From: Thalassotalea sediminis | GTDB lineage: Bacteria > Pseudomonadota > Gammaproteobacteria > Enterobacterales > Alteromonadaceae | Direction of reading: 5' to 3' | NCBI RefSeq assembly: GCF_030295915.1 | Contig: NZ_AP027361.1 | Span: 2,418,001 to 2,482,000, forward strand | DNA length: 64,000 bases | Part shown: positions 11,800 to 21,955 of the stretch, one piece after another | How positions within the stretch are numbered: position 1 is the first letter of the stretch | How the letters are laid out: every line of letters begins with the position of its first letter | Position numbers and translations under genes: made by a program | The notes under the pieces: generated by a model | Databases searched by the model: none | What the model was told of the DNA's origin: nothing | What the model saw: the letters and a program-made list of their open reading frames with translations, nothing else

Positions 11800-12669
11800 T
11801 TAACTTTTCTTTTCACAAGTCATGGGCTTAGCATTATAACCCCAAGTAATACGAGCTTCGCCTTGGTGCTCCCAGAGAGATTCATTTCTTCCTTGATACC
11901 TTGCACCACTTGCACTTGGCTTTTGAAACATTAACGACATATTATTACCGCGCTCAGCAATAACTGTTGCAGGGTTTGTTTGGTAAAAAGTAAGGTTTAT
12001 TTCTTCTTCAACCTCGTTATTACAGCTATAAGTAACAGGACCTATAGACGGCACTAAGTCATATTTAGCTTGTAACGTCGCAATACGCATCATATATATT
12101 TGCTCAATACACTGCGTTTGATCTTGCGCTTTCCAACAGTCATCACGACCTTTACGCCAACCATGCTGTGTAGCTCTCAGTCTATTAATTTGCGCTTTTG
12201 TTAATGAATATTTTGCTTGTTGGTATATCGCTGAAAGTTGACTATCGAGAGATGCTAACACTTGATGGCTACAGACAAGATCTTCTGCACTGCCAAGTTG
12301 GGTATTCGCACAGTCAAAAGAAGGCGTCATTTTCGCTACGTGGTTATCGTTTATTACATCTACCTGACGTTTTTCTAGGGATTTTTTTTCTATAATATCC
12401 AGTATATAAGAACACCACTGCTGACTTGTATGCTCTGGTGTTGTTGGTTTATCTCGTATTCCTAATTTATACTCAATGACAGACTTCCACTCATCACTAG
12501 CGATATCTGGACCATGGCCTAAATCATCATCTGACTGCACTTTATCTGCAATAAGTTGATAGTTAGTAGCGGAACATTGTTGCCCAATATATACTCGCGC
12601 TTGTTCTTGTTTTGTTGAACAAGCCGACAATGCTAACAACAGTAGTACAGCGCAACCTTTTATATTCAT
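11800..12669 (-). CDS. Lipoprotein with LprI-like and MliC-like lysozyme inhibitor domains
   Basis: This 289-residue protein has a lipoprotein signal ending in LALSAC (Cys17). An N-terminal Cys-rich region of unknown type covers about 30-95. An LprI/DUF1311-like domain (about 116-200) contains SFDCANTQLGSAEDLVC, the QHGWRKGRDDC segment and a final Cys pair. The C-terminal MliC-like domain (about 211-287) has VTYSCNN and SASGARY, the loop that MliC proteins insert into the lysozyme active site. Both domain families inhibit c-type lysozymes, so a periplasmic or outer-membrane defence role is likely. I place the start at 12669 because it gives a normal lipoprotein signal; the frame extends 21 codons upstream. 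The fusion of both inhibitor types is unusual. Confidence 0.82.
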   Translation of the reverse strand: MNIKGCAVLLLLALSACSTKQEQARVYIGQQCSATNYQLIADKVQSDDDLGHGPDIASDEWKSVIEYKLGIRDKPTTPEHTSQQWCSYILDIIEKKSLEKRQVDVINDNHVAKMTPSFDCANTQLGSAEDLVCSHQVLASLDSQLSAIYQQAKYSLTKAQINRLRATQHGWRKGRDDCWKAQDQTQCIEQIYMMRIATLQAKYDLVPSIGPVTYSCNNEVEEEINLTFYQTNPATVIAERGNNMSLMFQKPSASGARYQGRNESLWEHQGEARITWGYNAKPMTCEKKS

Positions 12670-12766
12670 AAAGCATTCCATGGTTTTATTAGTGATTCCA
12701 ATCGTTAACGAGTTACCACTCATTATAGTCAAACTTACAACTCCCCGTTCTATTTACTGACATAAA

Positions 12767-12843: not shown

Positions 12844-14259
12844 TTAATCATGACGAGGCTTAATTTTTCGGTTGGAAGGAGCAACCGGCTTATGACCATT
12901 TGAGCCCTTTGCCACTCTTGTATAGGTTTTAATACTACGTGAGTGACCTCCCTTGGCTGGCTTCATCGCGCGAACTTTCACAGGTCTATCATATGGCTTA
13001 GATACACGCTTATTCAATTGCGGTCTAACCCCTTGTGTTTTCGTTGCCGATGAATATTTTTGTGGCTTATTAACCTGCCGATACTGTTTCAGTTTGTGTT
13101 CAACGTGTCGTTGTTTTTCTACTTTAGGTGTGCGTTTTACATGTTGCCTTTGACCGTTTTTTATTAGTATCCCTTTATCGTGATCACGTTGAATTTGACG
13201 ACCTGAGACACCTTTTGTAACGCGCTTTTGCTGTTTATTTCTTTTTTCAACCATAGGTTCGCCGTGAAGATTACGTAATTTTTTGCTCACAGCGTGATGC
13301 TTTTTATACGACTGACCATGACGGTCAATAGTGCGCTCTTTTCTTATACCCTGTTTGGTATCACTACTTATATAGTGACGCACAGGACGATGAGAAGCAT
13401 ATCGCTTTTTAACGTCATGCGAGCGATAAGCAACACCTTTTCGACGATTAGGGTTATGCTGCCAACGCTTAACGCGATGACTTGTCGTGACGCGTTTTCG
13501 GCTATGGTAGCTGCGATAGTATTTCGGTGTATGGTGCACAACGTAACGTTTGTGCCATTGAAAGCCAACAAAGAAAAAATCTAAAGCTAAGTGCACGCCT
13601 GAACGCCAATAAAATGGTCCATGATGATAACTATAGTATGCAGGTCTATGCCAATAAATAGGTGGACGATGTGACCAATGCCAATGACCATAAACCCTGC
13701 GAGTATCGTAATATGGTACATAAATAATTTCTGGTTGTTCCGGTTGAATAACAATCGTTTTTTGCTCGCGGATGATCTTAACATTGTCCATTTTAGCTAA
13801 GTTCCCTGCGTTATCAGCTTGCTGTCTCAGCCTTTGTATACTTGCTAATACTTGTGCTTCATCTTGTAAAAATGCATCGCCTAGTTCTCGCATCCAAGTA
13901 AGATCTGTACTAAGTTTTTCCAGTATTTGTGGAAATGCTAATAACGCCTTAACACTAGGATCCCAATCTTTATTTTCAGCTATTTCCTGTAAAGTATCGT
14001 TACTGGCATACTTGTTATCTTTAATAAATCTGTCAGCATCAATAACTTCAATAGGGTATGTTGCCGCAATTAATATATGGGTTAATAAGGTATCCGGATA
14101 AAGGGCAATAGGTGCTAACATTTGAGCAAGTTCAGCTTCCGACATCTCAGTATATTCAACCGTTGCCTGTGCTTGATTTTCCGCTGCTACGGTTAGCTGC
14201 GTGCTAGTTACGGCACTTGCTATGATGATTGTCGTTATCAGTTGTTGATGTAGTTTCAT
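12844..14259 (-). CDS. DUF3300 family exported protein with basic, His-rich tail
   Basis: This 471-residue protein has a signal peptide (about 1-25) and an N-terminal DUF3300 domain (about 38-185), recognised by ELAQMLAPIALYPD, LLTHILIAATYP and the WDPSVKALLAFP segment. From about 185 onward it is a low-complexity region rich in His, Tyr, Arg and Lys. It contains HWHWSHRPPIYWHRP and many RH/KR clusters, and could bind polyanions or metal. The function of DUF3300 is not known. Its promoter carries the same direct-repeat operator as the PepSY/regulator/kinase operon directly upstream. I therefore infer that it is an output gene of that system. Confidence 0.85.
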   Translation of the reverse strand: MKLHQQLITTIIIASAVTSTQLTVAAENQAQATVEYTEMSEAELAQMLAPIALYPDTLLTHILIAATYPIEVIDADRFIKDNKYASNDTLQEIAENKDWDPSVKALLAFPQILEKLSTDLTWMRELGDAFLQDEAQVLASIQRLRQQADNAGNLAKMDNVKIIREQKTIVIQPEQPEIIYVPYYDTRRVYGHWHWSHRPPIYWHRPAYYSYHHGPFYWRSGVHLALDFFFVGFQWHKRYVVHHTPKYYRSYHSRKRVTTSHRVKRWQHNPNRRKGVAYRSHDVKKRYASHRPVRHYISSDTKQGIRKERTIDRHGQSYKKHHAVSKKLRNLHGEPMVEKRNKQQKRVTKGVSGRQIQRDHDKGILIKNGQRQHVKRTPKVEKQRHVEHKLKQYRQVNKPQKYSSATKTQGVRPQLNKRVSKPYDRPVKVRAMKPAKGGHSRSIKTYTRVAKGSNGHKPVAPSNRKIKPRHD

Positions 14260-14297: not shown

Positions 14298-14331
14298 AAT
14301 CTACAAAAAGTAAACTGAATGATGCCTGAAT
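14298..14331 (-). promoter_or_regulatory. Response-regulator operator and -10 box of the DUF3300 promoter
   Basis: Read on the minus strand, ATTCAGGCATCATTCAG (14331 to 14315) has two TTCAG half-sites 11 bp apart. It is followed after 11 bases by a -10-like TAGATT (14298-14303). The arrangement is the same as at 16777-16810 and 16851-16884. OmpR/PhoP-family regulators bind direct repeats with this 11-bp period. Confidence 0.65.
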
Positions 14332-14378
14332 ACCTAAAGAAAAAATAAAGAGAGAAGGAAGAAATATAAGTACTTAGC

Positions 14379-15737
14379 TTATGTTTTGTTATTAAAAGTA
14401 AGTGTAAAGCACGCCCCTCCGTAAGTTGAAGAGGTATTAATTGATAATGTACCTTTATAGCTATCAACTAAATCACGAACAATTGCTAATCCTATGCCAT
14501 GTCCTTGTTGATAGGTATCTGCACGTTTGCCACGTTTTAAGATCTTGGTTACATCGTCGGGGTCGATCCCCTGTCCATCATCTTCAACAATAAAAACTAA
14601 TTGATGCCCCATCGTTTGAATATCAATAGAAACAACAGATTTTGCAGCTTTACAGGCGTTATCAAGCAAGTTACCTAATATTTCAAGTAAGTCAGCTTCA
14701 TCGCCTTTAAACATCAATTTTTCATCACACTGACTATCAATAATCAACGCTTTATCTCGATATATTTTTTCTAAGCTATTAACCAACTTACGTAAGCTAG
14801 GTGCAATCTCAATTCCAAGATACCAGGCAGCATGACCGGCACTCTGTGCGCGTTTTAATTGATGCTCGATCATTAAATTCATCACGTCAATTTGTTCTTG
14901 AGCATTCTTATCATTAGTGGCTTTTACATATCCTTGGATGACTGCCAAAGGTGTTTTCAAGCTATGTGCAAGATCTGATAAGGCATTTCGGTACCTAGTA
15001 CGTTGCATTTTTTCAGTATCAAGCAAATTGTTAAGTTGATCTGTCACTTGTTGTAATTCAAGCGGGTAATGGTTAGAAAGTTGATTACTTTTACCTTGTT
15101 CAATCGCAGCAATTTCAGCGGTTAACCGTGATAGCGGTTGTAAACTCCAGCGCAACCAAACATATTGTAGTATCAACAATATGGTCATTAATATCAGTAA
15201 GCCTAACCAAAGTTGTTGTTTAAATTCAGCCATTAACACTAAAAAGCTCGATTGTTCTTTGATAATGTGGAGCGTTACTATGTGGTCATTATTTATGTCA
15301 GAAAAAAGCACTGAAAAGCTATAAATAAAGTGTTCCGTATTATCAATATTTATTGTTGAGAAGTTTGACTCACCGACTTTAGGAGAAGGCATATTTTTTG
15401 GTAATGTAATAGCGAGTAAAGATTGTGATTGCCAAAGTAATTGTGCATTTTTTAAGTCTGAAATTGCCGCATACATACCAGATTGCCCGATATTAAAGCG
15501 ATTTTCAGCCAGCACTTCTGGCATTTGTAGTTGACCTTGTTCAAATTCAGCTACGGCAAGCAAACTATAAGAATACGCAGTTAATTCATTACTCACCCCC
15601 GCTTCCATATGATTTTGGTAAGCCTTAATAATGGTAATACCAACAATGGGTAGTAAGACCAGCACCATAAAAACCGCACTTAATAATAAACGCGATTTCA
15701 GCGAATTAAACCAAGCATTAACGTTAGCCATCTGCAT
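14379..15737 (-). CDS. PhoQ-like sensor histidine kinase
   Basis: This 452-residue inner-membrane kinase has a TM1 (about 17-39), a periplasmic sensor (40-173), a TM2 (about 175-197) and a HAMP-like linker. The dimerisation/phospho-acceptor helix has H258 in AHSLKTPLAVIQGY, the wording typical of PhoQ. The ATPase domain has N-box NLLDNACKA, G1 DDGQGID and G2 GHGIGLAI. It is the third gene of the PepSY-regulator-kinase operon, 7 bp after the regulator. PhoQ-type kinases sense divalent cations, acidity or cationic peptides. The sensor here is not similar enough by eye to claim the same signal. DUF3300 follows after 119 bp and has its own promoter. Confidence 0.88.
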   Translation of the reverse strand: MQMANVNAWFNSLKSRLLLSAVFMVLVLLPIVGITIIKAYQNHMEAGVSNELTAYSYSLLAVAEFEQGQLQMPEVLAENRFNIGQSGMYAAISDLKNAQLLWQSQSLLAITLPKNMPSPKVGESNFSTINIDNTEHFIYSFSVLFSDINNDHIVTLHIIKEQSSFLVLMAEFKQQLWLGLLILMTILLILQYVWLRWSLQPLSRLTAEIAAIEQGKSNQLSNHYPLELQQVTDQLNNLLDTEKMQRTRYRNALSDLAHSLKTPLAVIQGYVKATNDKNAQEQIDVMNLMIEHQLKRAQSAGHAAWYLGIEIAPSLRKLVNSLEKIYRDKALIIDSQCDEKLMFKGDEADLLEILGNLLDNACKAAKSVVSIDIQTMGHQLVFIVEDDGQGIDPDDVTKILKRGKRADTYQQGHGIGLAIVRDLVDSYKGTLSINTSSTYGGACFTLTFNNKT

Positions 15738-15744
15738 ATCTCAA

Positions 15745-16422
15745 TTACGGTTCAAATGTCTTAAGTCGATAACCTTGGCCTCTTAACGTCTCAATAAATT
15801 GTAAACTACCATCAGGATCAAGTTTTTTACGTAAGCGACGAACAAAGACTTCAATGACATTAGAATCTAGATCAAAGTCCTGATCGTAAATATGCTCTGT
15901 TAACTGGGTTTTAGAAATAACATGCCCCATGTGAAGCATCATATATTCGAATACTTTATATTCGTAGCTACTCAAAGCAATCGTTTGTTGATGAACACTT
16001 ACAACCATACTCGCCGTATCAATTGAAAAAGGACCATTCGTAATAACCGGACTCGCCTGCCCTGCACTTCGACGAATTAGTGCGTTCAAGCGAGCAAGTA
16101 ATTCCTCCACTTGGAAAGGCTTAGTTAAATAGTCATCTGCGCCAGCATCAAGTCCTTCAACTTTATCTTGCCACCGGTCTCTTGCAGTCAAGACAATAAT
16201 GGGATATTTAATCTCTTGTGCACGTAATTGTTCAATCAATGATTTACCGTCTAGCTTAGGTAAGCCTAGATCTATGATCGCGGCATCGTATTGATATTCC
16301 GTAGCCTGAAAAAAGCCTATTTCACCATCATCAGCACAATCAACACTATAGTTAGCTTGCTCGAGTTGTTCTTTCAACTGAGACTGTAAATTAATATCAT
16401 CTTCAACAATTAATAACCGCAT
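15745..16422 (-). CDS. PhoP-like OmpR-family response regulator
   Basis: This 225-residue regulator has a receiver domain (1-118) with acidic pocket VEDD, phospho-acceptor D51 in IIDLGLP, T in LTARD and K in TKPF. A winged-helix DNA-binding domain (about 130-223) has recognition segment NVIEVFVRRLRKKLD and the RGQGYRL wing. It closely resembles PhoP/QseB-type regulators. It lies 3 bp after the PepSY gene and 7 bp before the kinase. I infer that it binds the three GTTCAG/ATTCAG direct-repeat operators around this cluster, including one in front of its own operon. Confidence 0.92.
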   Translation of the reverse strand: MRLLIVEDDINLQSQLKEQLEQANYSVDCADDGEIGFFQATEYQYDAAIIDLGLPKLDGKSLIEQLRAQEIKYPIIVLTARDRWQDKVEGLDAGADDYLTKPFQVEELLARLNALIRRSAGQASPVITNGPFSIDTASMVVSVHQQTIALSSYEYKVFEYMMLHMGHVISKTQLTEHIYDQDFDLDSNVIEVFVRRLRKKLDPDGSLQFIETLRGQGYRLKTFEP

Positions 16423-16425
16423 CGC

Positions 16426-16716
16426 TTAACTTCCTACTATTTTTCCGCTAACAGCATCTACTTTAACTGACACTACATGTCCATTGTTCTTTAAGAGTTT
16501 AACTTTGTAACCTGGGTTGCCTTTAACCTTAGTTCGTTGAACCTTCAATACTTTACCGCCATAGCGAGCTTTTACCATTTGAGCAGCTTGTTTTGCGTTT
16601 GCTACCCGGTATGTTTTGCCAGCTTCATATGAATGAGCATACAAAGGCTGTATGTGGTTCAGTGTGAACAACATTGTCATAAACAAAATGGAGCGAACTA
16701 CCGTGCAAAAATTCAT
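16426..16716 (-). CDS. Small exported PepSY domain protein
   Basis: This 96-residue protein has a signal peptide (about 1-27) and one PepSY domain (about 35-95: KQAAQMVKARYGGKVLKV, then GNPGYKVKLL and VDAVSGKIVG). PepSY proteins are often encoded with two-component systems and are thought to modulate a kinase or a protease in the periplasm. It is the first gene of the operon and is preceded by the direct-repeat operator at 16794-16810, so its level should follow regulator activity. That suggests a feedback role, which is inference. Confidence 0.88.
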   Translation of the reverse strand: MNFCTVVRSILFMTMLFTLNHIQPLYAHSYEAGKTYRVANAKQAAQMVKARYGGKVLKVQRTKVKGNPGYKVKLLKNNGHVVSVKVDAVSGKIVGS

Positions 16717-16776
16717 TTAAAATACCGTGTGAATGATAACAACCCTGTCAGTGTAAAAGTAATCGAGTTTGATAAC

Positions 16777-16810
16777 AATCTATCAAGCGAAAACTGAATA
16801 CTTACTGAAC
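16777..16810 (-). promoter_or_regulatory. Response-regulator operator and -10 box in front of the PepSY operon
   Basis: On the minus strand GTTCAGTAAGTATTCAG (16810 to 16794) contains TTCAG twice, 11 bp apart. It is followed after 11 bases by TAGATT (16777-16782), a -10-like box. The position suits autoregulation of the operon. Confidence 0.7.
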
Positions 16811-16850
16811 ACAAAAATAAAAAGAATATAAATAAAATCATCATTATAAC

Positions 16851-16884
16851 GTTCAGGAAACATTCAGAATAAACGCGTTTTAAT
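16851..16884 (+). promoter_or_regulatory. Response-regulator operator and -10 box of the choice-of-anchor H gene
   Basis: GTTCAGGAAACATTCAG (16851-16867) matches the divergent operator at 16794-16810 in 14 of 17 positions. It is followed after 11 bases by TTTAAT (16879-16884). The second half-site lies where a -35 box would be, as expected for activation by an OmpR-family regulator. Confidence 0.7.
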
Positions 16885-16915: not shown

Positions 16916-17701
16916 ATGACAACAACTATCACAACTATTGCCGTCATCAGTATACTCTTTGCATTACCCGTGAGCGCAACCTCATCAGCAGTAAAAAGTA
17001 AGAGTATTTCAGCAGCTAAAACAATGTGGGACCAATCATCGGCCTTGAGCCAATTAAAGAGCAAAGAAACGGCTGAAAATCAATTAACCGGCTTAACACG
17101 AGAACAAGTTAAAGCACAAAAAATTGCACAAGATCTAGTAACGATTAATAAGCCAAAAGCAGCCTCTAGAATTGACCATAGTTTTACGATATTCCAAGGT
17201 TATGCCCAACTCATTGAAGATTACGATGAAGATGGTTTTTTTCAAACTTTTAGTGTTACTTTTGACGCCGACGTTTATAGCTATGATTATATTAATGCTG
17301 CGAACGTTTATGCCGAACTTTACCTGAGTAAAAATGGTGGTGATTGGATCCATTATTACACCACCGAAGATTTTGTTATTTATGGTGAAGATCAAGATGA
17401 CGAATACGAAGTTTATACTACCTTAAATCAAGGCTATGTTCCTGAGTATTATGATGTATTAATTGACTTATATGAAGTTGGATACCCTGGCGTAGTTGCA
17501 ACGTATAGTTCAGATAATACTAATGAGCTTTATGCATTGCCTCTCGAAAGTACAGACTATGATCCGAACTACGTGGAAGTTGTGTACGAGAGTGAAAGCC
17601 ATGGTCACGGTGGCAGTATTTATACGTTATTAGCGCTATTAGCGAGTATTGCGTTTATACGCGTAAAAAACACAACTCATAAGTCAAAGTACCGTGAATA
17701 A
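16916..17701 (+). CDS. Choice-of-anchor H family surface protein with GlyGly-CTERM-like tail
   Basis: This 261-residue protein has a signal peptide (about 1-21) and a helical segment. A beta-rich, very acidic domain (about 85-215) follows, with many Asp, Glu and Tyr residues (EDYDEDGFFQTF). The C-terminal sorting signal is GHGGSIY, a hydrophobic stretch and a basic end. That tail resembles GlyGly-CTERM signals processed by rhombosortase. The start has a good ribosome binding site (GAGGA, six bases upstream). The gene is divergent from the PepSY operon and carries the same operator, so it is probably a regulated cell-surface protein. Its molecular role is unknown. Confidence 0.78.
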   Translation: MTTTITTIAVISILFALPVSATSSAVKSKSISAAKTMWDQSSALSQLKSKETAENQLTGLTREQVKAQKIAQDLVTINKPKAASRIDHSFTIFQGYAQLIEDYDEDGFFQTFSVTFDADVYSYDYINAANVYAELYLSKNGGDWIHYYTTEDFVIYGEDQDDEYEVYTTLNQGYVPEYYDVLIDLYEVGYPGVVATYSSDNTNELYALPLESTDYDPNYVEVVYESESHGHGGSIYTLLALLASIAFIRVKNTTHKSKYRE

Positions 17702-17783: not shown

Positions 17784-20700
17784 TTAATCTTTTAGCGGTT
17801 TTTCTTTTGCCTGTTGCTCAAGCTTATGCTGCAAGAACTCTGGTGATTGGGTGTTTTTAGCCAAGGCATAGTAAGCAGCAGGAATAATAAACAAGGTTAA
17901 TAACGTTGCAACAATAACACCAGTAAACACTACAACCCCTATTACCATACGACTTTCAGCACCAGGACCTGAAGCTAATACTAGCGGTACGGCACTCATC
18001 ACGGTTGTTAATGATGTCATAATAATCGGCCTTAAACGTTGAGCGGCAGCCTGCACAATAGCTTCACTAAACTCAACGCCTTTATCGCGCAATTGATTGG
18101 TGAATTCGACAATCAAAATACCATTTTTGGCACTTAATCCGATTAACATGACAATGCCTATTTGGCTGTATATATTCAGTGTTAACCCTGTTGACCACAA
18201 ACCAAACAACGCACCAACTAACCCTAAAGGCACCGTTAACATAATAACAAAGGGATGCACGAAACTTTCAAATTGTGCTGCTAACACCAAGAATGTCACG
18301 GTCAACGCGAGTATAAAGACATAAGTCATCGCTGAAGCACCTTCATAAAACAACTGTGATTCACCTTTGTAATCAACGGCACCGTCTATGTCATTTTCTT
18401 CAGCTGCAACTTGATTTAAAAAGTTAAGTGCTTCTTCTAGCGTATAACCATCAGCTAAATTTGCGCTTAAGGTAATTGAGCGCATTCGGTTATAACGATT
18501 AAGTCGAGAAGCGGTTGCTTCTTCCGTTAACGTGATCAAACTGTCTAATGGTACTAACTCACCACTGCGTGATTTTAAGTAAATATTAGATATATCGGTA
18601 GGATTTGAAAAATCTTTCTTCGTGCCTTTCAATATCACATCGTACTCTTCACCACGATCAATAAATGTGGTTGCACGACGTTGTCCTAACATTGTTTCTA
18701 ATGTTCTACCAATATCAGAAACGGAAACACCTAGATCGGCTGCTTTATTTTTGTCGATATTGACTAAAAATTGTGGAAAAGTCTCTTTGTAATCATGGTC
18801 AATGCGCACAAGACCAGGGTTTGTTTCTGCACGTTTAATGATTCGATCACGCCAATCTGCAAGTTGCGCATAATCATTACCTTGCAATACAAACTCTATA
18901 GGTCGAGATGAGCCTCCCCCCCCAATGCCTCGACGCATAATTGCAAACGCGCGTACATCAGTAACCTCTCGCATTTTACCACTGATTTCATCCATAACGT
19001 CCCAAGTTGAACGCTTTCTTTCGTCCCAGTCAGCCATGCCAACAATGGCAACACCACCTCTACCGCCCCAACCTGGCACTCGAATAAGTACACGACTTAG
19101 CTCGCCAGATTGAGAATAAGGCAATAATCGTTCTTCAATTTTCGCCATATTTGCAGCATTATTTTCATAACTTGCCCCTTGTGGGCCATTCATCATTAAA
19201 AAGAAGGTGCCACGATCTTCTTTTGGTGTGAGCTCCGATGGTACTTGTTGTAACAATGAATAACTCGCAAACCCTGATAATAACAACGTAGCAACTAAGC
19301 TCCATTTACGTAGCATGTTGGAGCGAATTGATGCTTTATAAGCCTGTTCGATCTTCTGAAATCGTTTATCCATCCATTGACTAAATTTACTCTCTTTTTC
19401 AGATGGTTTTAATACTTTAGAACAAAGTGCTGGAGATAATGTAAGTGCAGTGATACTTGAGAAAAACACCGCGGCGCTAACCGCCATTGCAAATTCAGTA
19501 AATAATGCACCAATACGTCCATCCATAAATACCAGTGGTACGAACACTGAAATAAGTACTAATGTCGTTGCTATAATCGCAAATCCCACTTCACGCGCAC
19601 CTCGATAAGCCGCTAATAATGGTTGTTCACCTAACTCTATGCGACGATGAATATTTTCGAGCATAACAATGGCATCATCGACCACAAGCCCTATCGCCAA
19701 AACTAAAGCGAGTAGCGTTAGCAAATTAATCGAATAATCCATGGCGAGCAAGAACATAAAACTGCCCACTAATGCCACAGGCACAGTTACAGCAGGAATT
19801 AACGTAGCACGAATATTGCCTAGGAACAGGTAAATAACGAGTACAACTAAAGTCATGGAAATAGCAAGGGTACGATAAACTTCATCAATAGACTCCTTGA
19901 TGAAGATAGAAGAGTCATAACTGTCTTCTATGGTTGTGCCTTCTGGTAAGTTTCGCTTAATCTTTTCTAATTCAAGACGTGCATTTTCTACCACGGTTAA
20001 CGTATTGGCCTTTGCCTGTTTTACGATACCAAGGCCAATCATGTCTCGACCATTACCTCGAAACAAACTTTCATCGTCAGCCGCTTCTAGATGTACATCG
20101 GCTACTTCGCCTAATCGCACTAAATAGCCATCTTCACCACGTTTAATCACTAAATTTCTAAAATCAGTTTGATCTTTATAACTACGCGCTGTGCGCACAG
20201 TAAAATCACGGTCAACCGATTCTATTTCACCCGCAGGCAATTCAACATTTTCTGTTCTCAGTGTATTTTCAATATCTTGGCTGGTGATCCCCCTGGCGGC
20301 CATAGCTTTACGATTTAACCATACTTTCATGGCATATTTTCGTTCACCACCAACACGAACATTTGAAACACCATCAACAACAGCTAATCTATCGACAATA
20401 AAGCGCTGAGCGTAATCTGACAGTTGCAATGAATCCATTGTCGTACTATTTAACACAAACCAAGCGATCGGACTTTCGTCACTATTAGATTTAGATACTT
20501 CGGGTGGCCTAACTTGCTCAGGTAAACTATCGAGAGCTCTTGCGACACGCTCGCGAACATCATTTGATGCCGCATCAATATCTCTACTGATATTAAACTC
20601 AATGGTAATGTTTGAACGACCATTGCGGCTCGATGAATTAATGCTTTTAATGCCTTCAATACCCGAAATACGATTCTCTAGTACTTGGGTTATTTTGGTT

Positions 20701-20879
20701 TCAATAATCTCTGCGCTTGCGCCAGTATAACTTGTACTTACGCTGACAATAGGAGATTCGATATCTGGATATTCACGCAACGGCAACATGGTAAATGCAA
20801 CAATACCAAACGTAAGCAAAAGCAGGTTTATAACAATGGCAAAAACCGGACGTTTTACACTAGTATCTGTAATTTTCAC
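17784..20879 (-). CDS. RND efflux transporter, inner-membrane permease (HAE1 family)
   Basis: This 1031-residue, 12-helix permease has the two large periplasmic loops of AcrB/MexB-type proton-driven exporters. The proton-relay residues are visible as D401 and D402 in VVDDAIVMLENIHRR and K918 in LSAKNGILIVEF. The N-terminus (SVKRPVFAIVINLLL) and the PLREYPDIE segment are family hallmarks. It lies 8 bp after the adaptor gene on the same strand. No outer-membrane channel gene is present nearby, so a shared TolC-like protein is expected. No dedicated repressor gene adjoins. Substrates cannot be deduced. Confidence 0.95.
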   Translation of the reverse strand: MKITDTSVKRPVFAIVINLLLLTFGIVAFTMLPLREYPDIESPIVSVSTSYTGASAEIIETKITQVLENRISGIEGIKSINSSSRNGRSNITIEFNISRDIDAASNDVRERVARALDSLPEQVRPPEVSKSNSDESPIAWFVLNSTTMDSLQLSDYAQRFIVDRLAVVDGVSNVRVGGERKYAMKVWLNRKAMAARGITSQDIENTLRTENVELPAGEIESVDRDFTVRTARSYKDQTDFRNLVIKRGEDGYLVRLGEVADVHLEAADDESLFRGNGRDMIGLGIVKQAKANTLTVVENARLELEKIKRNLPEGTTIEDSYDSSIFIKESIDEVYRTLAISMTLVVLVIYLFLGNIRATLIPAVTVPVALVGSFMFLLAMDYSINLLTLLALVLAIGLVVDDAIVMLENIHRRIELGEQPLLAAYRGAREVGFAIIATTLVLISVFVPLVFMDGRIGALFTEFAMAVSAAVFFSSITALTLSPALCSKVLKPSEKESKFSQWMDKRFQKIEQAYKASIRSNMLRKWSLVATLLLSGFASYSLLQQVPSELTPKEDRGTFFLMMNGPQGASYENNAANMAKIEERLLPYSQSGELSRVLIRVPGWGGRGGVAIVGMADWDERKRSTWDVMDEISGKMREVTDVRAFAIMRRGIGGGGSSRPIEFVLQGNDYAQLADWRDRIIKRAETNPGLVRIDHDYKETFPQFLVNIDKNKAADLGVSVSDIGRTLETMLGQRRATTFIDRGEEYDVILKGTKKDFSNPTDISNIYLKSRSGELVPLDSLITLTEEATASRLNRYNRMRSITLSANLADGYTLEEALNFLNQVAAEENDIDGAVDYKGESQLFYEGASAMTYVFILALTVTFLVLAAQFESFVHPFVIMLTVPLGLVGALFGLWSTGLTLNIYSQIGIVMLIGLSAKNGILIVEFTNQLRDKGVEFSEAIVQAAAQRLRPIIMTSLTTVMSAVPLVLASGPGAESRMVIGVVVFTGVIVATLLTLFIIPAAYYALAKNTQSPEFLQHKLEQQAKEKPLKD

Positions 20880-20887
20880 GACTTAAA

Positions 20888-21955
20888 TTACCCCTTGATA
20901 CTAACTTTGCTGCCAGAACGTATTTTTATCAGTCCTTCGGTCACTATTTGTTGGCCATCACTTAGGCCTTTATCAATTGCAACCCAGCCGTCATGTCGAC
21001 CTACTACGTGCACTTGAACGCGATTTGCTACACCTTTTTCAATTGCAAAAACATAATGTTGATCTTTTAACGGAATAACCGCTTTTTCAGGTATCATAAT
21101 TGCTTGTTCAGAGCTCAATTGTAATGCGGTATCTAATAACATTCCTGGGCGTAAAAGCCCTTGTTTATTCTCAAAGCTAGCGGTAACTTCAATACTGCGA
21201 GTAACCGCATCTATACGAGAACTAATATGCGTTACCTCGCCCGAAAATATATGGTTTGGATAAGCATCATTCTTTGTAGTAACCGTCATACCAACTGTTA
21301 ACTGTGCAAGATATTTTTCAGGGACTTTAAAGTCTACTTTAATAATACTGATGTCATCTAGCGTGGTAATGTTTGTAGAAGTATTAACAAAGCTACCAAT
21401 CGAAATCTCGCGTTTTCCTAATAACCCAGAAAACGGTGCAGTTACCGTCATTTCAGCAAGTTTTGTTTTAGCACTTTCTAATTGTGCCTGTGTAGCATCT
21501 ACTTTTGAGAGCTGTTCCTCGAGCATAGATTTAGCCGTAGCTTGTGAACGTGCCAGCTCTTTCAATCGATTTAATTGTCGCTGCTCTTCACGTAAATTAA
21601 TCGATAACTCTTTCACAGCAAACTTTTCTTCCTGCGATTGCAGTTGCACTAACTTTTGACCTTTCTTTACTAATTGGCCATCTTCAAAAAATATATCGGT
21701 AATATAATCACTTTGTGCACTTTTTACGTAGATAGCTTGATTAGCACGGGCACTGCCAATCGCCTCAATTAATACGGCATTTTCTTGCAATGTTGCAATG
21801 TGTGCCTCGACCTGAGTAGCATGTCCTGCCATATCATTTTTTTCGCCTTGGCTAACAGGCAAATACAAATAAATACAAAGACCAGCTAATACGGTAATAA
21901 TAAAGGGAAATAAAGCTTTACCTGATTGCGTAGAATACATCTCGTTTACACTCAA
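20888..21955 (-). CDS. RND efflux periplasmic adaptor (membrane fusion protein)
   Basis: This 355-residue protein has an N-terminal membrane anchor (about 14-34). A lipoyl/barrel-sandwich half precedes a helical hairpin (about 95-165) with QLVQLQSQEEKF and TAPFSGLLGKREISIG. Beta-barrel and membrane-proximal domains complete it. It bridges the permease encoded immediately downstream to a TolC-type channel. It is the first gene of the two-gene operon and is divergent from a small membrane protein gene, with a 246-bp intergenic region between. Confidence 0.93.
   Translation of the reverse strand: MSVNEMYSTQSGKALFPFIITVLAGLCIYLYLPVSQGEKNDMAGHATQVEAHIATLQENAVLIEAIGSARANQAIYVKSAQSDYITDIFFEDGQLVKKGQKLVQLQSQEEKFAVKELSINLREEQRQLNRLKELARSQATAKSMLEEQLSKVDATQAQLESAKTKLAEMTVTAPFSGLLGKREISIGSFVNTSTNITTLDDISIIKVDFKVPEKYLAQLTVGMTVTTKNDAYPNHIFSGEVTHISSRIDAVTRSIEVTASFENKQGLLRPGMLLDTALQLSSEQAIMIPEKAVIPLKDQHYVFAIEKGVANRVQVHVVGRHDGWVAIDKGLSDGQQIVTEGLIKIRSGSKVSIKG

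What the first reader, a model, noticed from the sequence alone, without database searches (positions are those of the whole stretch)
14298..16884. Three promoters sharing one direct-repeat operator define a local regulon of the PepSY/PhoP-like/PhoQ-like system
Seen: GTTCAGGAAACATTCAG, GTTCAGTAAGTATTCAG and ATTCAGGCATCATTCAG each have two TTCAG half-sites exactly 11 bp apart. Each is followed after exactly 11 bases by a -10-like hexamer (TTTAAT, TAGATT and TAGATT). They lie in front of the choice-of-anchor H gene, the PepSY-regulator-kinase operon and the DUF3300 gene. Known: OmpR/PhoP-family regulators bind hexamer repeats with an 11-bp period near the -35 position. Inference: the regulator at 15745-16422 activates its own operon and two envelope genes of unknown function, tying DUF3300 and the anchor-H protein to one stress response.
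Basis: partly seen in the sequence, partly recalled or inferred. Interest (0 to 1): 0.72.

Follow-up and report, generated by a model that had tools for sequence, protein, structure and literature searches.

The report
Two-component regulator with shared DNA switches
A bacterial membrane sensor system, and two neighbouring envelope genes of unknown role, carry the same small DNA switch in front of them, and that switch is kept in most of the related bacteria examined even where the genes have moved apart, so the regulator very probably controls all of them together.

Summary
In detail: three TTCAG-N6-TTCAG sites stand exactly 11 nt before -10-like hexamers, in front of a choice-of-anchor H gene, a PepSY-regulator-kinase operon and a DUF3300 gene. 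Only six such repeats exist in the 3.9-Mb genome. In five genomes of the genus, this one included, all 20 box positions and both -10 hexamers of the divergent promoter are invariant, against 36% of other columns. Across 59 family genomes the promoter pattern occurs 132 times, its reversed control 13 times. A site with at most one mismatch precedes the operon in 50 of 51 genomes with the regulator, anchor-H in 39 of 42 and DUF3300 in 38 of 40, including 20 of 23 and 19 of 21 genes on another contig or over 20 kb from the regulator. The regulator groups with enterobacterial PhoP. Gene order matches the DbfQRS module of Vibrio cholerae; operator layout matches Salmonella PhoP and Pseudomonas BqsR, with another core sequence. 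Binding, signal and the functions of DUF3300 and anchor-H remain untested. New variant of a known kind.

The parts
14315..14330 (-). operator of the DUF3300 gene, TTCAG-N6-TTCAG
14298..14303 (-). -10-like hexamer TAGATT, 11 nt from the operator
12844..14259 (-). DUF3300 gene (471 aa)
   Evidence: Pfam PF11737, 299.8 bits against a cut-off of 25
14379..15737 (-). sensor histidine kinase (DbfS/PhoQ-like, 452 aa)
   Evidence: HisKA and HATPase_c; best NCBIfam hit PhoQ, 211.9 bits, below its cut-off of 497
15745..16422 (-). OmpR-family response regulator (DbfR/PhoP-like, 225 aa)
   Evidence: Response_reg and Trans_reg_C; best NCBIfam hit PhoP, 217 bits, below its cut-off of 336; tree
16426..16716 (-). 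small PepSY protein (DbfQ-like, 96 aa), probably exported (signal peptide judged by eye)
   Evidence: PF03413, 36.7 bits against a cut-off of 24
16794..16809 (-). operator of the PepSY-regulator-kinase operon, TTCAG-N6-TTCAG
16777..16782 (-). -10-like hexamer TAGATT, 11 nt from the operator
16852..16867 (+). operator of the anchor-H gene, TTCAG-N6-TTCAG
16879..16884 (+). -10-like hexamer TTTAAT, 11 nt from the operator
16916..17701 (+). choice-of-anchor H family protein (261 aa)
   Evidence: NF038116, 135 bits against a cut-off of 53
11800..12732 (-). candidate extension: MliC/LprI lysozyme-inhibitor-like gene, same strand, 111 nt downstream of DUF3300, perhaps co-transcribed
   Evidence: PF09864 and PF07007; similar gene next to DUF3300 in L040, L041 and L042, not found in L043

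Best explanation
This is an autoregulated PepSY-response regulator-histidine kinase module of the DbfQRS type with a compact envelope regulon. Inferred mechanism: the exported PepSY protein sits on the periplasmic domain of the kinase and keeps it in phosphatase mode; envelope damage relieves this, the kinase phosphorylates the OmpR-family regulator, and a regulator dimer binds the direct repeat (G/A)TTCAG-N5-(G/A)TTCAG. The repeat overlaps where a -35 element would lie and ends 11 nt before the -10, so the regulator works as a class II activator, as PhoP is held to do at its architecture I promoters. It switches on its own operon, DUF3300 and the anchor-H protein. Shown here: the sites, their geometry, their conservation, and co-occurrence with the regulator. 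Inferred: binding, direction of regulation, signal, and the PepSY role (by analogy with V. cholerae DbfQ).
For: Three sites with identical geometry. All 20 box positions and both -10s invariant in five genomes of the genus against 36% elsewhere in that intergenic region. 132 pattern hits against 13 for the reversed control in 59 family genomes. Genes behind 140 sites: DUF3300 20, anchor-H 17, PepSY 17 plus regulator 4, glycine-zipper cluster 12. At most one mismatch in front of the operon in 50 of 51 genomes, anchor-H 39 of 42, DUF3300 38 of 40; reversed-motif control 0-1 per group. Unlinked genes 20 of 23 and 19 of 21. TANNNT at 11 nt in 60 of 127 sites, at most 13 at any other spacing from 4 to 21. 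E. coli yacH (a DUF3300 gene) and the DUF3300 gene of regulator-less G029 have no site better than 3 mismatches. The looser layout TTCAN-N6-TTCAN-N11-TANNNT stands without mismatch in front of a PepSY-regulator operon in the 13 genomes of family f21, probably Vibrionaceae, that gave a regulator hit. In V. cholerae phosphorylated DbfR raises output of the dbfQRS promoter and outer-membrane damage activates it (PMC12714742, sections and passages). Salmonella PhoP architecture I: one direct box 12 nt (once 11) before the -10, predicted class II, shown for mgtA (PMC3335776, passages).
Against: No binding or expression data. In relatives with a regulator under 66% identical, most DUF3300 and anchor-H sites have one mismatch (DUF3300: exact 3, one mismatch 14, of 19; anchor-H: exact 6, one mismatch 13, of 22), and in anchor-H promoters of that group the -10 at 11 nt is not conserved. 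G022 has no good operon site; three anchor-H genes (G009, G023, G060) and two DUF3300 genes (G027, G034) have only sites with 2-3 mismatches. Among 14 more distant loci L183-L196, 7 show no site upstream on the regulator strand (L184-L188, L190, L191) and L189 only a one-mismatch site 1.2 kb upstream. L076 and L077, which group with PhoP, have no TTCAG repeat better than 3 and 2 mismatches. Genomes are related, so counts are not independent; the Fisher values ignore this. Another OmpR-family regulator with like specificity is not strictly excluded.
Confidence: 0.87

Rival explanations
1. The repeats bind a different OmpR-family regulator of the cell (PhoB-, CpxR- or QseB-like), and the neighbouring two-component system is just one of its targets.
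For: OmpR-family proteins share repeat operators of 11-bp period (recalled; PhoP and BqsR examples); E. coli DUF3300 (YacH) was found among CpxR-regulated genes (PMC9600279, passages).
Against: The site tracks this operon across families (50 of 51; 13 f21 genomes; 6 of 14 more distant loci within 500 nt), the pattern of autoregulation. Anchor-H is absent from all 8 sampled genomes without the regulator. E. coli yacH, in a genome that has CpxR (recalled), has no such site.
Confidence: 0.07
2. The sites are real but the regulator represses from them.
For: The boxes flank the -35 position, where repressors also bind (general knowledge).
Against: The fixed 11-nt distance to the -10 is the layout of PhoP class II activation; BqsR is an activator, and in one promoter a pentamer overlaps the -35 (PMC4682146, passages); dbfQRS is positively autoregulated in V. 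cholerae.
Confidence: 0.05
3. Chance similarity, or repeats conserved for a reason unrelated to transcription.
For: TTCAG-N6-TTCAG alone is no more frequent genome-wide than its reversed control (6 against 6).
Against: Clustering here; with the -10, 5 against 0 in this genome and 132 against 13 in the family; invariance in the genus; conservation at unlinked genes.
Confidence: 0.01

Closest known systems
DbfQ-DbfR-DbfS of Vibrio cholerae (VC1637-VC1639)
   Same: Small PepSY protein, regulator and kinase in one operon; positive autoregulation reported there, an autoregulatory site predicted here; genomes that are probably Vibrionaceae carry TTCAN-N6-TTCAN-N11-TANNNT in front of such an operon.
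   Different: Regulators of the f21 genomes are only 47-50% identical to this one; reported V. cholerae targets differ (biofilm, VCA0732); no operator is described in the parts of PMC12714742 and PMC5636140 that I saw; DUF3300 is not mentioned in the main text of PMC12714742.
PhoP/PhoQ of Enterobacteriaceae
   Same: Neighbouring clade in the tree (joint 20-row group 100/99, PhoP side 100/99; the window's own side is weak, 89/69); direct repeat ending 11-12 nt before the -10; autoregulation; a protein with the glycine zipper 2TM domain (PF05433) in the core regulon, SlyB there and a different small protein in relatives here.
   Different: Half-site TTCAG instead of (T/G)GTTTA; scores below the PhoP and PhoQ equivalog cut-offs; PepSY partner; the kinase matches PhoQ only from residue 170 on, not the sensor domain.
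BqsPQRS/CarPQRS of Pseudomonas
   Same: PepSY genes in front of regulator and kinase; operator of two pentamers separated by 6 bp, TTAAG(N)6TTAAG (PMC4682146, passages). Two Pseudomonas loci with two PepSY genes (PF03413 over cut-off) before a regulator were found here; L209 has TTCAG-N6-TTAAG upstream, L212 was not scanned.
   Different: Central base of the pentamer differs (A there, C here); two PepSY genes there, one here; the ExxE iron-binding motif of the kinase (PMC12666569, passages) is absent from the sensor region here; those regulators fall outside the PhoP-plus-window group (midpoint root).

Membership tests
OmpR/PhoB-family response regulators | receiver domain plus winged-helix Trans_reg_C with conserved phospho-acceptor | tested here: met
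   PF00072 and PF00486 above cut-off; D51 and K101 invariant in 30 aligned sequences
DbfQRS-like module | small PepSY gene directly upstream of regulator and kinase, in one operon | tested here: met
   gene order and spacing, PF03413; co-transcription itself not tested
DbfQRS-like module | PepSY protein binds the kinase sensor domain and favours phosphatase activity | not testable with these tools
   needs pull-down or two-protein modelling
DbfQRS-like module | regulator activates its own operon | tested here: inconclusive
   operator in front of the operon in 50 of 51 genomes; no expression data
PhoP/PhoQ (NCBIfam equivalogs NF008078, NF008077) | score above curated cut-off | tested here: not met
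   217 against 336 and 211.9 against 497 bits
PhoP/PhoQ | PhoP box with (T/G)GTTTA half-sites | tested here: not met
   half-sites are (G/A)TTCAG
PhoP/PhoQ | box in direct orientation 11-12 nt before the -10 (architecture I) | tested here: met
   11 nt in all three; 60 of 127 sites with TANNNT at that spacing
BqsRS/CarRS | operator TTAAG(N)6TTAAG | tested here: not met
   same spacing, different core; mixed TTCAG-N6-TTAAG in 9 of 19 DUF3300 promoters of the more distant relatives
BqsRS/CarRS | ExxE Fe2+ site in the kinase sensor domain | tested here: not met
   no ExxE in kinase residues 1-190
choice-of-anchor H family | Sden1266 domain NF038116 | tested here: met
   135 against 53 bits
GlyGly-CTERM/rhombosortase substrates | C-terminal GlyGly-CTERM signal plus a rhombosortase in the genome | tested here: inconclusive
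   tail reads GHGGS, hydrophobic stretch, basic end but has no NCBIfam hit at E 1; the genome has a rhombosortase match, 158.6 against 84 bits

The most novel reading that the evidence does not exclude
TTCAN-N6-TTCAN-N11-TANNNT is the ancestral operator and promoter layout of the whole DbfR-type family, including the V. cholerae DbfR regulon for which I saw no operator described, and the PhoP box and BqsR box are descendants of it. DUF3300, choice-of-anchor H and glycine-zipper proteins form a conserved envelope-protection set under this regulator.
Probability: 0.45. Interest if true: 0.72.

Novelty: new variant of a known kind. Interest (0 to 1): 0.6.

Why it matters
It gives a precise, testable operator for a widespread class of PepSY-linked two-component systems, one of which was recently shown to respond to outer-membrane damage, and puts two families of unknown function (DUF3300 and choice-of-anchor H) in its predicted direct regulon. 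It also offers a comparison for how the PhoP box and its core targets arose.

Tried and rejected
The bare repeat without a -10 is not enriched genome-wide (6 against 6); enrichment appears with the -10 element or at specific genes. A structure model of anchor-H from three sequences was poor overall (mean pLDDT 48), with strands at about 63-81 in residues about 90-200; Foldseek gave only weak matches, the best to beta-galactosidase-type glycosidases (best E 2.3e-4, TM 0.33), so no function is claimed. UzcRS of Caulobacter was considered as a published precedent of the motif: the one paper opened shows its motif as a figure only and has no hit for TTCAG. Two literature searches with TTCAG as a term listed nothing that describes this operator: 20 of 501 papers listed; one of them, PMC12714742, opened; 7 of 7 listed, none opened. 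A search for DUF3300 found 3 papers (one opened in passages). This covers only the held open-access library. The PepSY match of L079 is just below the Pfam cut-off (22.5 against 24), that of L192 also (20), and the small protein before the L195 regulator has none, so the label PepSY that I gave L195 in the tree is not borne out.
Full report
The observation. Chance gives 0.09 repeats in the window; three are seen. The genome, one contig of 3,896,845 bases, holds six such repeats, and three of them are these. The bare repeat is not enriched genome-wide (six for the reversed control too); the promoter form (with TWNNNT) is, 5 against 0. Of the three other repeats, two lie inside genes (reading frames that look like RibD and UDP-glucose dehydrogenase, my naming; the second also has a TWNNNT) and one has a -10 and lies in front of an OmpA/glycine-zipper lipoprotein gene, 168 nt from the -10 to its start.

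The genes. The operon encodes a 96-aa PepSY protein, an OmpR-family regulator and a histidine kinase. PhoP and PhoQ are the best NCBIfam hits but stay below their curated cut-offs (217 against 336; 211.9 against 497). The flanking genes are DUF3300 (PF11737) and choice-of-anchor H (NF038116). The anchor-H protein ends in GHGGS, a hydrophobic stretch and basic residues, and the genome has a rhombosortase match over cut-off, but no NCBIfam model hits the tail.

Conservation in the genus. In four other genus members (L040-L043) all three promoters keep the repeats without a mismatch. In the alignment of the divergent anchor-H/PepSY intergenic region of these and the window, 20 of 20 box positions and all 12 positions of the two -10s are invariant, against 36% of 184 other columns, gap columns included.

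Conservation in the family. In 59 genomes (the window's included) the promoter pattern occurs 132 times and its reversed control 13 times. Grouping the genes behind 140 distinct sites in the loci then held (some from outside those 59 genomes) gave DUF3300 (20), anchor-H (17), PepSY (17) or regulator (4) of this operon, and a cluster of small proteins (12); the rest are pairs, single genes or sites inside genes. Three of the 12 small proteins were given to Pfam and all three have the glycine zipper 2TM domain PF05433. By position, 11 of the 12 stand between the site and the regulator, so the gene may be the first of the operon there; one (L148) is on another contig.

Test on orthologues. Of the 59 genomes, 51 have the regulator at E 1e-60 or better. 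Looking only upstream of the orthologues (up to 1300 nt for the operon and anchor-H, 1000 nt for DUF3300), with at most one mismatch in the ten box positions: operon 50 of 51, anchor-H 39 of 42, DUF3300 38 of 40; exact sites 36, 21 and 22. Eight control words were run in the same stretches, split into regulators of at least 66% identity and below. The reversed motif GACTT gives 0 or 1 per group, TTACG and TTGAC 0 to 2, AGTTC 1 to 6; words that are shifts of the motif score higher (GTTCA 5-21, TCAGT 5-19, CAGTT 2-14), and the reverse complement CTGAA scores 19 of 24 and 19 of 20 at the operon and anchor-H of the closer group, where the two promoters are divergent, and 0-2 elsewhere. The result holds for genes on another contig or over 20 kb from the regulator: DUF3300 19 of 21, anchor-H 20 of 23. 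Misses: G022 (operon); G009, G023 and G060 (anchor-H); G027 and G034 (DUF3300). One anchor-H match below the family cut-off (G024) was not counted, and genomes with two matches were counted once. Genomes without the regulator: none of 8 has anchor-H, one of 8 has DUF3300 (G029) and its best site has 3 mismatches. Fisher p is 1e-5 and 6e-4, without correction for relatedness. E. coli yacH, a DUF3300 gene, also has nothing better than 3 mismatches in the 354 nt upstream.

Promoter layout. Among the 127 sites of that test, TANNNT starts at 11 nt in 60, and at any other spacing from 4 to 21 nt in at most 13. This is the layout of Salmonella PhoP architecture I promoters (box in direct orientation 12 nt, in one case 11 nt, before the -10, overlapping the -35, predicted class II; PMC3335776, passages). 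BqsR of P. aeruginosa, an activator, binds TTAAG(N)6TTAAG (PMC4682146, passages). The operator here is of the same build with another core. In the more distant part of the family, 9 of 19 DUF3300 promoters read TTCAG-N6-TTAAG and 13 of 22 anchor-H promoters show three near half-sites in phase.

Reach. Colwellia (L178) keeps sites at all three genes, one of them with a mismatch; Shewanella (L177) has TTCAG-N6-TTCAC before anchor-H and TTCAG-N6-TTCAT before the operon. Among 14 further loci with regulators 48-55% identical (L183-L196), five have an exact site within 500 nt upstream on the regulator strand (L183, L192, L194, L195, L196), L193 has one with one mismatch, L189 has one mismatch at 1.2 kb, and seven have none. 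In the 13 genomes of family f21 with a regulator hit (12 fetched, plus L079), the operon is preceded by TTCAN-N6-TTCAN-N11-TANNNT without a mismatch; the control word scored 2 or more mismatches. A homologue of the L079 PepSY protein lies directly upstream of the regulator in all 12 others. Of seven other loci (five of f6, two of f25), all have TTCAN-N6-TTCAN with one mismatch in the -10; a second f6 paralogue (L362) has no site. These are samples: two f25 and six f6 loci of those.

Phylogeny. In a tree of 32 regulators (drawn with a midpoint root), the window and 14 relatives form, with the enterobacterial PhoP clade (5 rows, of which L076 and L077 lack the TTCAG repeat), a group of support 100/99; the window's side itself is only 89/69. 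Regulators of two Pseudomonas operons with two PepSY genes (L209, L212) and the alphaproteobacterial ones lie outside. So the regulator is close kin of PhoP by descent, while its operon is of the DbfQRS/BqsPQRS type. Enterobacterial PhoP keeps two targets in all ten species studied, phoPQ and slyB (PMC2650801, section 14); SlyB carries the glycine zipper domain PF05433, as does the small protein found here in relatives, though that protein is no SlyB.

Mechanism. In V. cholerae DbfQ binds the DbfS sensor domain and shifts it to phosphatase activity; LPS defects, polymyxin B and thymol activate; phosphorylated DbfR raises expression from the dbfQRS promoter (PMC12714742, abstract, sections 9, 10, 13 and passages). 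VC1638/39 responds to polymyxin B and controls VCA0732, directly or not (PMC5636140, passages). E. coli YacH is listed among CpxR-regulated genes, and its deletion strain survived protamine better than wild type (PMC9600279, passages). By analogy I propose envelope damage as signal. Iron sensing as by BqsS is unlikely: its ExxE motif (PMC12666569, passages) is absent from the sensor region, and iron did not alter the V. cholerae reporter.

Verdict. A real, conserved operator with a small envelope regulon, regulator most likely the one next door (0.87). Known kind of system, new operator variant and new predicted targets.

Noticed in passing
window 11800-12732: A lysozyme-inhibitor-like gene (MliC and LprI domains) follows DUF3300 on the same strand after 111 nt and is kept beside DUF3300 in three of four other genus members; it may share the DUF3300 transcript.
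   Followed up: partly
L003 1501-1533; genome 3436946-3436978: A fourth promoter-type site in this genome lies in front of an OmpA/glycine-zipper lipoprotein gene; a relative (L120) has a site in front of a homologous gene.
   Followed up: partly
L366 1501-1533; L150 2022: A looser site (TTCAG-N6-TTCAT) lies inside the end of a gene just before what looks like a SIMPL/YggE-type gene; in genome G026 an exact site stands in front of a gene that looks alike (my reading of the sequences, no family search).
   Followed up: no
L068, L072, L118, L140, L159 and others: In a number of relatives a small glycine-zipper protein gene stands between the operator and the regulator genes (11 of 12 cluster members by position).
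   Followed up: partly
upstream of anchor-H in G013, G020, G027, G085 and others: Three half-sites in 11-bp phase (such as TTAAG-N6-TTCAG-N6-TTCAT) instead of two; 13 of 22 in the more distant group.
   Followed up: partly
window 17784-21955: An RND efflux-type transporter gene and its probable membrane fusion partner (my reading) converge on the anchor-H gene; no exact TTCAG-N6-TTCAG site lies in front of them.
   Followed up: no
L121 2074, L122 2058: Two related genomes share an exact pattern match inside a coding region just before a BamA-like reading frame (my naming); perhaps coding constraint.
   Followed up: no
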